Of a DNA stretch of 64,000 nucleotides, positions 9,722 to 12,705 are shown in pieces. This DNA comes from Devosia psychrophila (GTDB lineage: Bacteria > Pseudomonadota > Alphaproteobacteria > Rhizobiales > Devosiaceae): contig NZ_LAPV01000023.1 of the NCBI RefSeq assembly GCF_000971275.1, positions 1-64,000 of the forward strand, in the 5' to 3' direction. The notes beneath the pieces are model-generated. The model ran no database searches. It saw nothing but the letters and a program-made list of their open reading frames with translations, and had not been told where the DNA came from. How positions within the stretch are numbered: the first letter of the stretch is position 1; every line of letters starts with the position of its first letter. Position numbers and translations under genes: made by a program.

Positions 9722-10258
9722 ATTCGTCGTCCAATGAGACCAGTCGCGCCCCAGAAAGATGGGCCGCTCTCGAACGAAGATATCACCAGCGCCGATGTTC
9801 AGCTCATCGACGCTGAAGGCGAGAACCGCGGTATCGTGAACACCCGCGCCGCAATGACCGAAGCGCAGGAACAGGGGCTCGACCTCGTCCTGATCTCTCC
9901 CAACGCTGTGCCGCCAGTCGCCAAGATGCTCGACCTCGGCCGCTTCAAGTATGCCGCGCAGAAAAAAGCTGCCGAGGCCCGCAAGAAGCAGAAGGTGATC
10001 GAGGTCAAGGAAGTCCAGCTGCGTCCCAATATCGACACGCATGACTACGAGACCAAGATGAAGGCCGTCGAACGCTTTCTCGAGGATGGCGACCGCGTCA
10101 AGGTCACCATGCGCTTCCGTGGTCGCGAAATGGCCCACCAGGAACTCGGCATGCTGCTGCTCGTCAAGGTCAAGGACCAGTTCGAGCCCGTAGCCAAAGT
10201 CGAAAGCCAGCCCCGCTCCGAAGGCCGCCAAATGGTCATGGTCTTGGCGCCCAAGTAA
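9722..10258 (+). CDS. infC: Translation initiation factor IF-3 (non-AUG, ATT start)
   Basis: IF-3 binds the 30S subunit, blocks 50S joining and checks the start codon. N-domain ([12 protein letters not shown]), basic linker helix ([18 protein letters not shown]) and C-domain ([14 protein letters not shown]) are all present. I place the start at ATT 9722: AAGGA at 9708-9712 is nine bases upstream, and the N-terminus (RRPMRP, then VAPQKDGP) resembles rhizobial IF-3. The ATG at 9734 is 21 bases from that site, too far. An AUU start is the classical basis of IF-3 autoregulation. Length is 178 residues. Confidence 0.93.
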
Positions 10259-10286
10259 GGCGACGGTGGTTTTGAGAATTTTGAAG

Positions 10287-10313
10287 AGGCCCGCACAATG
10301 CGGGCCTTTTTGT
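10287..10313 (+). terminator. infC terminator (T1)
   Basis: Stem AGGCCCGCA / TGCGGGCCT with loop CAA, then TTTTTGTTT. A diverged duplicate occurs at 11481 next to an rbsK fragment. Confidence 0.88.
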
Positions 10314-10452
10314 TTGTGGTAATGGGTAGGGCCGCTTGCGTCCCCTTCGGACTATTTAAGCAGAGATTAAGCGGGGCCAGACTTTGCGAGACTTGGCCGC
10401 GAAGATGTCACTGCTGTGTGGCGGGGCTGCGGTCGGGTGGCCATGGCAGAAG

Positions 10453-11148
10453 CTATTCTGGCTGCGGAGGTTTAACCGGGTGTTCGTGAGTTTCGGGGCC
10501 AGCGTCCCCCAGTGCGTCGTCTGGGGCTGCCCACCATGGAGCCGTTGCGGCAAGGTCCGCCTTGGGTACACGATGCCACAGGAAGCCATCGGACTGAATT
10601 CGCTCATCAGGCATAAAGCCTCCCAAGCGCACGGTTTCTTCAAGGTAATCTTTCAACCATTGTGATGCTTCATCTGCCACGTCTAACGCTAACCTTCCGT
10701 CATAGAGGCCACCTTTGAGCCGGAGTTCCCGCTCTGCCATCATGCTTGAGAAGAGGGTAGGAAGGTCTTTTCCGTCGTTGTCAGGATCAGCGATAGCCTC
10801 CGCATAGGCGGAGAATTGATACTCTTTGAGAATGTTATGTCTCTCGCGGTCGATGAACTGCCAAAAAATCGGATACGATGATTTGTGCTCTCCTAATAGG
10901 CGGAATCGCGCTTTTAAACTGTCACGAAGTTCGGTGGAGAAGCATCTTTTGGCGTCCACCAACATCACATGAACAGAAGATTTCATGATTGCGCAGATGC
11001 CGGCCCACTGCACACGCCAGTCGGTGTAAGAGATTTTTTGGCCACGGAGGGTTTGTATGGCTCGGTCGGCATCTTCCCAAGCACGGTAGCAGCTGAGATA
11101 ATACTTCACCTCGATTGTGAAGTTTCGCGTTCCGTTCGGGAGCACCAT
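10453..11148 (-). CDS. Hypothetical protein, accessory cargo gene
   Basis: An unrecognised, probably cytosolic protein of 231 residues counted from the ATG at 11148 (GGAG just upstream). A start at 11226 would add 26 basic residues and is less likely. It has a mixed helical composition, several Trp and Tyr residues, no signal peptide or membrane segment, and a low-complexity C-terminus. Its base composition is visibly less GC-rich than neighbouring genes. It sits between the infC terminator and a truncated rbsK copy, so it looks like acquired cargo. No function is proposed. Confidence 0.6.
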   Translation of the reverse strand: MVLPNGTRNFTIEVKYYLSCYRAWEDADRAIQTLRGQKISYTDWRVQWAGICAIMKSSVHVMLVDAKRCFSTELRDSLKARFRLLGEHKSSYPIFWQFIDRERHNILKEYQFSAYAEAIADPDNDGKDLPTLFSSMMAERELRLKGGLYDGRLALDVADEASQWLKDYLEETVRLGGFMPDERIQSDGFLWHRVPKADLAATAPWWAAPDDALGDAGPETHEHPVKPPQPE

Positions 11149-11284
11149 TTTTCTCCGGCTAATACCAGAGCGCAATGTTCGCTTTATTTGTCTGCTACGC
11201 AATAACGCGAACAACCCTGTACACATGCACCTCAGAATTTCCTACTTCAGTGGACTGTCCATAATCAACCAACGCGATGATGCG

Positions 11285-11459
11285 CTAAGCCGGCGTCGCC
11301 GCTTCGACCTCGGCCGCCATTGGAATGGCCGGCTGCGCCCCCGGCTTGAGGCAGGCCAGACTTGCCGCCACTGCAGCGCGCTGCATTGCGGCTTCGAGCT
11401 CCAGTCCCGCATCCAGCCCGGCGGCGAGGTAGCCGCAAAATGTATCGCCGGCGCCGAGC
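11285..11459 (-). pseudogene. Truncated second copy of the rbsK 3' end
   Basis: About 175 bases match the last part of the intact rbsK (from 11809) at roughly 87% by eye, including the stop codon and the reading frame for the last ~57 codons. It stops abruptly at GCCGGCGCCGA and continues straight into a copy of the infC terminator. It cannot make a kinase. The divergence suggests that it came from a related strain or is an old duplication. Confidence 0.85.
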
Positions 11460-11506
11460 GTGGTTTTGAGAATTAGAAAAGGCCCGCACGATGCGGACCT
11501 TTTTGT
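11460..11506 (+). terminator. Duplicate of the infC terminator (T2)
   Basis: GTGGTTTTGAGAATT plus a hairpin GGCCCGCA-CGA-TGCGGACC and a T run repeats the sequence immediately after infC (10266-10313) with a few changes. No intact gene runs into it from the left on the + strand, consistent with its being a duplication scar. Confidence 0.8.
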
Positions 11507-11559
11507 TTTATGGAGCCAGCTGCACTTGTTTGCGTTGTTTTAAAAACAGCGAGGTTGAA

Positions 11560-11793
11560 ATGAGCGCGTCCGAAGAGAATTTTACCGGTAAGTGGCTTCA
11601 CACCGGCGACTGGCAGGGAAAAGATTTTAGCCACGAACTGCCTACTTATGACCACGACGAACATCCCGGAGGTTCTGGCGCGACCAAAATGCGCCACGCG
11701 ACGGTCGATCAAGAGGGTCGCAAGGTCGGACTTTGGGTGCCTGCCGACTGGACAGACGAACAAGTTCAAACTGCGCTAACCACCAATTGGTGA
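11560..11793 (+). CDS. Small hypothetical acidic protein
   Basis: A 77-residue soluble protein from the ATG at 11560; an upstream in-frame ATG lies inside the terminator hairpin and is rejected. A weak GAGG is nearby. It is rich in Asp, Glu, His and Trp (GKWLHTGDWQGKDF, LWVPADWTDEQV), without signal peptide or cysteines. I recognise no family. It occupies the place between the duplicated terminator and intact rbsK that the 10453-11148 gene holds in the first copy. Confidence 0.55.
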   Translation: MSASEENFTGKWLHTGDWQGKDFSHELPTYDHDEHPGGSGATKMRHATVDQEGRKVGLWVPADWTDEQVQTALTTNW

Positions 11794-11808
11794 CGTCCTA
11801 GATACGCA

Positions 11809-12705
11809 CTAGCCCCGCATCGCCGCTTCAACCTCATCCGCCATCGGAATCGCCGGCTGCGCGCCCGGCTTGAGGCACGCCAGACTTGCGGCCACCGCGG
11901 CGCGCTGCATTGCGGCTTCGAGCTCCAGCCCCGCATCCAGTCCCGCAGCCAAATAGCCGCAAAATGTGTCGCCGGCGCCGACGGTGTCGATGGGGGTGAC
12001 TTTGAGGGCGGGAACCGAGATGGTCTTGCCGTCGGCGGTGGCGGCCCGGGCGCCGTCGCCGCCGAGGGTCACGATGACGGTCTGGTCATGCGCCTTGGCC
12101 CAGTCGGCCATGGCGGCGTCGAGTTCGTCGATGCCGCGACCTGTAAGAAGGGCGAATTCGGTTTCGTTGGCGATCAGGATATCTGCCTTGGGGGCGAGCG
12201 CTTTGGTGGTGTCGAGGAACGGCGCGGTGTTGAGAATGGCGGTGATGCCGTTCTGCCTGGCGAGGTCCAGCGCCCGCTCGGTTGCCGCCTGCGGGATTTC
12301 CTGCTGCAGCAGCAGGATGCCGCCATTGACCTGGGCCAGCGCGGCGTCCGCATCGGCGGCGGTCATCGTGCCATTGGCGCCGGGCAGTACGGCGATGACA
12401 TTCTCGCCATGGCCATCGACGAAAATCATCGCAATGCCGGTCGGGCCGTCGACATGCTTGAGGGCGGACAGATCGACGCCGTCCTTTTCCAGCAGGTCCA
12501 GCGCCAGCGCGGCAAAGGCATCCTTGCCCACGGCCGACACATGGCGCACCTCGGCTCCGGCGCGACGCGCGGCCAGCGCCTGATTGGCGCCCTTGCCACC
12601 GGCCGCCATCGAAAACGTGCCGCCGGCAACGGTTTCGCCGGGCTTGGGCAGGCGACTAACAGTGCCGACCTGATCGAGATTGGTGGAGCCGAAAACCGTG
12701 ATCAT
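11809..12705 (-). CDS. rbsK: Ribokinase, PfkB family
   Basis: ATP-dependent phosphorylation of ribose to ribose-5-phosphate, or of a related sugar or nucleoside. It is 298 residues long. GSTNLDQVGTV opens the sugar-binding site, GGKGANQALAA is PfkB signature 1 (residues ~36-46), and DTVGAGDTFCGYLAAG near residue 242 is signature 2 with the catalytic Asp. The ATG overlaps the upstream DUF1697 stop (ATGA). It is the last gene of a leftward operon. No ribose transporter is adjacent, so the exact substrate is open. Confidence 0.92.
   Translation of the reverse strand: MITVFGSTNLDQVGTVSRLPKPGETVAGGTFSMAAGGKGANQALAARRAGAEVRHVSAVGKDAFAALALDLLEKDGVDLSALKHVDGPTGIAMIFVDGHGENVIAVLPGANGTMTAADADAALAQVNGGILLLQQEIPQAATERALDLARQNGITAILNTAPFLDTTKALAPKADILIANETEFALLTGRGIDELDAAMADWAKAHDQTVIVTLGGDGARAATADGKTISVPALKVTPIDTVGAGDTFCGYLAAGLDAGLELEAAMQRAAVAASLACLKPGAQPAIPMADEVEAAMRG

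What the first reader, a model, noticed from the sequence alone, without database searches (positions are those of the whole stretch)
10260..11990. Duplicated infC-terminator/rbsK-end junction carrying two different cargo genes
The order is T1 - gene 10453-11148 - rbsK 3' fragment - T2 - gene 11560-11793 - intact rbsK. T2 is a diverged copy of the infC terminator and the fragment is ~87% identical (by eye) to the last ~175 bases of rbsK. The fragment breaks off within a short stretch that is nearly the same in both parents (CGACGGTG next to infC and inside rbsK), so the joint looks like recombination at microhomology. Two alternative versions of the same infC-rbsK interval, each with its own cargo, seem to have been stacked in tandem. 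That would make this gap a small swap site for accessory genes.
Basis: partly seen in the sequence, partly recalled or inferred. Interest (0 to 1): 0.6.

Follow-up and report, generated by a model that had tools for sequence, protein, structure and literature searches.

The report
Stacked foreign alleles after infC
In this Devosia genome a stretch of DNA from a related bacterium appears to have been spliced in beside the resident version of the same gap instead of replacing it, so two versions, each with its own small unknown gene, now stand in a row.

Summary
The window (genus Devosia) carries infC - T1 - cargo A - rbsK 3' fragment - T2 - cargo B - intact rbsK. The fragment is 181 nt, 86% identical to the resident rbsK end; T1 and T2 match at 89%. 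New evidence: (1) polarised on ten relatives, the changes on the fragment's own lineage are 8 of 10 at third codon positions, so it diverged inside another working rbsK: a foreign allele, not a decayed local copy. (2) The closest relative by rbsK (G056) keeps T2 - cargo B - rbsK but has an SH3 gene and an infC 3' remnant left of T2. (3) G003 has the same kind of joint, rbsK fragment to infC fragment, with other cargo. (4) Such copies lie behind 0 of 448 other gene ends tested. No recombinase among the 11 cargo proteins scanned. Best mechanism: import by homology in infC, far end closed by illegitimate joining (HFIR-like). "Swap site" is partly supported: the gap is unstable while its neighbours are not, but its states cluster on the tree. 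Known kind of event; cargo function unknown.

The parts
9734..10258 (+). infC (translation initiation factor IF-3), left anchor
   Evidence: Pfam IF3_N and IF3_C
10280..10316 (.). T1, two-way terminator hairpin after infC
   Evidence: stretch 10276-10316 folds at -21.8 (+) and -17.6 (-) kcal/mol, z -5.5 and -5.8
10453..11148 (-). cargo A, 231 aa, function unknown, 53% G+C against 62% in the window
   Evidence: matches in 3 other of 75 genus genomes, not seen in this gap; 3 other of 297 order genomes; G+C; no family match beyond chance
11285..11462 (-). rbsK 3' fragment: end and stop codon of a foreign rbsK allele
   Evidence: 86% over 181 nt; 18 of 24 differences at third codon positions; polarised changes
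11455..11462 (.). joint between the rbsK fragment and the infC-downstream copy
   Evidence: sequence; repeats D1 and D9 overlap here
11473..11508 (.). T2, second copy of the infC terminator, counterpart of the one in G056
   Evidence: stretch 11470-11510 folds at -14.2 (+) and -17.6 (-) kcal/mol
11560..11793 (+). cargo B, 77 aa, small protein family of unknown function, 55% G+C
   Evidence: matches in 14 of 75 genus genomes, G000 included; of the hit loci read, beside rbsK only in G000 and G056
11809..12705 (-). intact rbsK (PfkB family kinase), right anchor
   Evidence: Pfam PfkB 5.6e-64

Best explanation
The gap holds two alleles of the infC-rbsK interval in a row. The T2 - cargo B - rbsK part is resident (shared with G056). 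The T1 - cargo A - rbsK fragment part came on a piece of DNA from another, unsampled Devosia lineage. Inferred steps: the piece paired with the recipient through infC, where a normal crossover kept infC whole; its other end, which lay about 180 nt inside the donor's rbsK, was not paired with the recipient rbsK but joined at a few matching bases just before a resident infC-terminator copy. This is homology-facilitated illegitimate recombination (HFIR) or a near relative. If the recipient looked like G056, the event also deleted the older cargo and infC remnant left of T2, the insertion-plus-deletion outcome usual for HFIR. Shown: the tandem structure, the foreign-allele signature, the different left side in G056, a second joint of the same type in G003. 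Inferred: route of entry, order of events, and what closed the joint (Ku end joining, slippage or other).
For: Structure. Foreign allele: 24 differences in 177 nt, [2,4,18] by codon position, 17 of them in synonymous codons; by majority of ten relatives chosen from 47 available, fragment lineage [1,1,8], resident lineage [1,0,9], ambiguous [0,3,1]; 8 of 10 against 1/3 gives p 0.003; mean identity to the 47 other rbsK ends is alike for fragment and resident, 0.743 and 0.738. Both cargos are low in G+C. G056: T2 - cargo B - rbsK with an SH3 gene end and infC remnant to the left. G003: rbsK fragment joined to an infC fragment at GCCAG, then a terminator, a dehydrogenase/LysR pair found in this gap in several Devosia, and rbsK. 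Control: 0 of 448 other ORF ends against 2 of 40 rbsK and 1 of 56 infC ends, or 2 of 70 infC ends with exact coordinates. No recombinase among 11 cargo proteins scanned. Means at hand: two Ku matches and ComEC in this genome; a gene-transfer-agent marker in 61 of 75 genus genomes.
Against: No donor genome was found: outside this genome the best match of the fragment is 85%. The joint has two bases that fit neither stand-in parent. HFIR products generally lose about as much as they gain (PMC3240628, passages); the loss here is assumed, from one G056 contig. In the four E. coli HFIR clones of that paper three had no homology at the joint, so microhomology is not a sharp test. G056 is a 77% complete assembly whose contig ends 362 bases left of cargo B, so its infC side is unseen. 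The gene-transfer-agent marker was not found in G000 itself. G003 and G040 probably descend from one event, so clear independent rbsK-fragment joints number two. The control covers genes near infC and the window only, not whole genomes. The window's genome is a draft of 239 contigs; reads were not available.
Confidence: 0.65

Rival explanations
1. Local tandem duplication of the interval by microhomology between rbsK and the infC terminator region, followed by independent replacement of the cargo and drift of the fragment.
For: The joint has the form expected of a tandem duplication (repeats D1, D2 and D9 in one order), and the resident rbsK is the fragment's closest match in the 75 genomes searched (87%).
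Against: A useless fragment should drift at all codon positions; its lineage shows [1,1,8]. The two cargos are unrelated in size and family, and G056 has the T2 side without cargo A and the rbsK fragment in the part that can be read.
Confidence: 0.15
2. Site-specific integration into the infC 3' end or terminator by an element whose recombinase has been lost; the repeats are old attachment sites.
For: Copies of the infC end lie behind other DNA in G003, G040, G005 and G056, and G003 and G040 share the left edge of the copy.
Against: Left edges differ: about 48 nt before the end of infC in G003/G040, 27 nt in G005, about 48 nt (by eye perhaps 60, with an indel) in G056, and after the stop codon in the window. 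An rbsK fragment at the joint is not expected of an attachment site. No integrase in what was scanned: 5 proteins from G003, G040, G005 and G056 and 4 from G018, of 80 ORFs collected from such gaps.
Confidence: 0.1
3. Assembly artefact: two related strains or a contaminant joined in one contig.
For: Draft of 239 contigs; the two rbsK ends share an exact run of 29 nt.
Against: The longest shared run is short for a false join; contamination is listed as 0.25%; the T2 - cargo B - rbsK side is confirmed by G056; a like structure exists in a contig of 1.15 Mb in G003.
Confidence: 0.05

Closest known systems
Homology-facilitated illegitimate recombination (HFIR) in Acinetobacter, Streptococcus pneumoniae, Pseudomonas stutzeri, and in E. 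coli conjugation (PMC3240628 and PMC2884548, passages only)
   Same: One end by homology, other end at a short match or none; adds foreign DNA next to a conserved anchor; 3 to 10 bp micro-homology in most joints of the transformable species.
   Different: Here inferred from natural genomes, with the donor carrying an allele of the same interval, so that fragments of both anchors are left as traces; loss of recipient DNA not shown. In the E. coli clones 3 of 4 joints had no homology.
Orphan immunity-gene arrays in Vibrio cholerae T6SS clusters, for which HFIR is proposed (PMC5361080, passages only)
   Same: New module added beside the older one, anchored on a conserved upstream stretch; part of the older module kept downstream; stacking by repeated imports.
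   Different: No effector or immunity genes recognised here; anchors are convergent housekeeping genes with a terminator; gene fragments rather than orphan genes mark the joints.
Hotspots of gene transfer without recognisable mobile elements and with recombining flanking core genes (PMC5635113, passages only)
   Same: Variable cargo between conserved genes, no recombinase seen.
   Different: Hotspots there are defined by counts of transferred genes against a simulated background in 80 clades; no such count was made here, and only one genome per species was available.
Merodiploids made by transformation in S. pneumoniae (PMC3784515, passages only)
   Same: Tandem partial duplication set off by an incoming fragment; one small duplication of 3,276 bp without flanking repeats is also reported there, mechanism unclear.
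   Different: The main cases are about 100-900 kb, rest on long repeats, and the one studied was unstable; here about 1.2 kb with differing copies.

Membership tests
HFIR product | Foreign DNA adjoining a region of homology to the recipient on one side | tested here: met
   infC intact, then T1 and low-G+C cargo A, then an rbsK fragment that diverged in another lineage; the crossover inside infC itself was not located
HFIR product | Non-homologous joint on the other side, often with 3-10 bp microhomology | tested here: inconclusive
   rbsK fragment joined to the infC-downstream copy; 8 shared bases in the stand-in parents, two of them altered in the joint
HFIR product | Deletion of recipient DNA of similar size | tested here: inconclusive
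   G056 has an SH3 gene end and infC remnant where G000 has cargo A and the rbsK fragment, but its contig ends there
HFIR product | Dependence on RecA | not testable with these tools
   needs experiment
Site-specific integrative element | Own integrase or transposase | tested here: not met
   none among cargo A, cargo B and 9 cargo proteins from G003, G040, G005, G018 and G056; most other ORFs of such gaps were not scanned, and the left part of the G056 gap is unseen
Site-specific integrative element | Constant crossover point | tested here: not met
   edges about 48 nt, 27 nt and about 48-60 nt before the infC end, and after the stop codon in the window
Gene-transfer hotspot | Excess of transferred genes against the genome background within a clade | not tested
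   one genome per species; genus-level instability only
Integron cassette array | attC sites and IntI integrase | not tested
   no integrase family matched by the cargo scanned; attC sites not searched

The most novel reading that the evidence does not exclude
The infC-rbsK gap in Devosia is a recombinase-free stacking site: imported pieces (of gene-transfer-agent size, a few kb, as I recall it) anchor on the strongly conserved infC end and pile up beside older versions, each unit bounded by a copy of the two-way infC terminator, so cargo is added without disturbing infC or rbsK. A natural, integron-like effect produced by plain recombination plus end joining.
Probability: 0.12. Interest if true: 0.6.

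Novelty: new member of a known kind. Interest (0 to 1): 0.38.

Why it matters
HFIR is rare in laboratory tests (passages) and hard to recognise in genomes because its joints leave little signature. Here the donor carried an allele of the same interval, so a fragment of the second anchor gene marks the joint, and its codon-position pattern places its divergence in a working gene before the import. That suggests a simple way to look for such events genome-wide: a gene-end fragment of one neighbour lying in front of a second copy of the other neighbour's end. If confirmed within species it would show how small accessory genes enter safe gaps without a mobile element.

Tried and rejected
Cargo function: no match for cargo A or B beyond chance scores in Pfam, NCBIfam, PADLOC (26) or PHROGs, nor among solved-structure sequences (best E 0.11 and 0.35). 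AlphaFold models: cargo B mean pLDDT 78.5, mostly strands; cargo A 68.4, helical, from only 5 sequences. Foldseek against PDB gave no match with E at or below 0.001 for either. Cargo A had one weak plasmid match and no phage match; cargo B one Devosia plasmid, partial match. The neighbours of the cargo A homologue in G016 gave no PHROGs match. Function left open.

Considered and dropped: hairpin similarity as proof of a terminator copy, because a similar hairpin stands elsewhere in the genome and terminator-only matches occur in G018 and G065. Terminator-like matches near rbsK in G004 and G027 were not counted. A match of 34 nt to an rbsK end in G040 with one of 48 queries was taken as chance, as were other single-query or weak matches. 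Outside the genus no rbsK in the expected orientation was found behind infC in the 34 loci tested (two of them the same place), so the site could not be compared there; G100 has one terminator-like copy and one Mesorhizobium locus has inverted copies, not pursued. The idea that the infC copies share one left edge was dropped.

Limits of the control: one search uses ORFs of at least 150 aa in the window and in Devosia-family loci around infC, so it is a local control. There the ORF finder recognised only 56 infC genes and missed the G040 case; with exact coordinates infC gives 2 of 70. The G005 copy (27 nt of infC and 26 nt downstream, E 1e-15) does not pass the control's criterion and is left out of those counts. 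Of the three hits two belong to G003, so its Fisher value of 0.005 overstates independence. In one search, 107 further ORF ends in named Devosia loci and one other locus gave 2 hits, both in L113, which is the same place as G003. The tree rests on two proteins and a short search.

Literature: searches. The search for Devosia with infC gave one paper, unrelated by title and abstract start. I did not meet this joint described, in those listings only.

Full report
What is there. The window belongs to a Devosia genome (G000, 4.5 Mb, 239 contigs). Between infC (+, 9734-10258) and rbsK (-, 11809-12705) lie T1, cargo A (-, 10453-11148), an rbsK 3' fragment (-, 11285-11462), T2 and cargo B (+, 11560-11793). 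The repeats are real: 181 nt at 86%, 36 nt at 89%, 20 nt at 90%. Of 51 ORF ends tested in the window, only that of rbsK has a same-strand copy within 7 kb downstream.

The fragment is a foreign allele. In 177 aligned nt it differs from the resident rbsK at 24 positions: 2, 4 and 18 at first, second and third codon positions; 17 of the 24 lie in synonymous codons. Polarised by majority on ten other Devosia rbsK ends (chosen by me from 47), the changes on the fragment's lineage are 1, 1, 8 and on the resident's 1, 0, 9, with 4 ambiguous. The seven differences in changed amino acids lie at the joint and in the last ten codons, where the protein end varies anyway. A gene fragment left to drift would not do that (8 of 10 against one third, p 0.003). 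The fragment is on average as far from the other 47 rbsK ends as the resident is (0.743 against 0.738 identity). Its best match outside this genome is 85% (G056 and G058), so the donor is an unsampled lineage. Cargo A has 53% and cargo B 55% G+C in a window of 62%.

The resident side. G056, the closest by rbsK among those compared (92.4% of the gene's nt; 96.6% aa), has T2 - cargo B - rbsK in the same order, with cargo B 94% identical in protein. Left of T2 stand the end of an SH3-domain gene (Pfam SH3_3) and a remnant of the infC 3' end. So T2 is of infC origin, was already a second copy in that lineage, and the left neighbour differs between the two genomes. The G056 contig (4509 bases) ends there, and its infC was not found.

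The same kind of event elsewhere. In G003 an rbsK fragment of 60-73 nt runs straight into an infC fragment at GCCAG; then follow a terminator, a dehydrogenase/LysR gene pair that fills the gap in several other Devosia (L052, L074, L077, L079, L083, L086), and rbsK. The inserted part carries a chemotaxis receptor gene. G040, its sister on the tree, shares the infC copy but has other DNA directly left of it, with HxlR and flavodoxin-type genes in the inserted part. G005 has a short infC copy (27 nt of infC and 26 nt downstream) at +252. With one criterion (last 120 nt, same strand, within 7 kb, E at most 1e-6) copies were seen for 2 of 40 rbsK ends, 1 of 56 infC ends and 0 of 448 other ORF ends; with exact coordinates for 2 of 70 infC ends.

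How unstable is the gap? Of 71 loci with infC (window included), 70 keep the upstream hydrolase within 321 bp; 38 of 41 rbsK with enough sequence keep DUF1697 next door; but rbsK lies within 300 bp of infC in 18, at 301-7000 bp in 26, and is not seen in the sequence held in 27, some of which are cut short by contig ends. On a tree of 70 rows the label 'empty' (at most 300 bp) needs 8 changes (at least 5 forced by well-supported branches) against 16.1 in shuffles, none of 500 as low. So the gap turns over, but its states are clustered. The rows are species, not strains.

Mechanism. The layout is what one gets if an incoming piece pairs through infC, and its far end, inside the donor's rbsK, is joined to the recipient just before an infC terminator copy. 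In the genome's own sequences the two parents share CGACGGTG there, and the joint reads CGAGCGTG. HFIR joints have 3-10 bp of micro-homology in most cases and generally a deletion of similar size (PMC3240628, passages), though 3 of 4 E. coli clones in that paper had none. A G056-like recipient would supply the deletion. This genome has two Ku matches and ComEC; a gene-transfer-agent marker is found in 61 of 75 genus genomes but not in G000. These make the route possible and no more. The hairpins T1 and T2 fold well on both strands, so cargo sits between insulated ends, a plausible reason why insertions here are tolerated (inference).

Comparison. For T6SS immunity arrays in Vibrio the same one-sided insertion was proposed (PMC5361080, passages); hotspots without mobile elements and with recombining flanks are described in many species (PMC5635113, passages); small variable segments in E. 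coli were ascribed in large part to illegitimate recombination, possibly helped by homology (PMC2884548, passages). The present case is a new example with unusually clear traces, not a new kind. Cargo A and B have no assigned function; cargo A homologues are rare (3 other of 75 genus genomes; 3 other of 297 order genomes), cargo B is scattered in the genus (14 of 75 with G000).

Verdict. Observation confirmed; stacking of two versions supported; microhomology joining likely; swap site partly supported at genus level and untested within species.

Noticed in passing
L033, L034, L052, L074, L077, L079, L083, L086: A dehydrogenase-like gene and a LysR-type regulator form a pair that recurs in the infC-rbsK gap of several Devosia (the dehydrogenase is named by eye, not by a family search).
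   Followed up: partly
L096:1854-2093: In G056 an SH3-domain gene end and an infC 3' remnant lie directly left of T2.
   Followed up: yes
G000:C80:60050-61671 (L213, L214): Two Ku-family matches, pointing towards each other by the strands given, in the window's genome.
   Followed up: no
75 genus genomes: The gene-transfer-agent marker PF13547 matches in 61 of 75 Devosia genomes but not in G000; some of the matches are partial.
   Followed up: no
window 11809-11985 and L096: The last 177 nt of the resident rbsK are less like G056 (87.6%) than the whole gene is (92.4%), which could mean recombination inside rbsK too; not tested.
   Followed up: no
L087, about 1774-1826 in infC orientation: G005 has a 27-nt remnant of infC with 26 nt of downstream sequence, 252 nt behind infC.
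   Followed up: partly
L033 and L034, behind infC; L034 also before rbsK: A G+C-rich imperfect palindrome stands behind infC in both genomes and again before rbsK in G040, a possible repeat element.
   Followed up: no
L122: In a Mesorhizobium locus three inverted, 82-89% alike copies of about 50-56 nt from behind infC lie within 6.2 kb.
   Followed up: no
window 11560-11793 and alignment A2: Cargo B belongs to a small protein family of about 77 aa, seen here in Devosia genomes, with invariant tryptophans and glycines and no known domain.
   Followed up: partly
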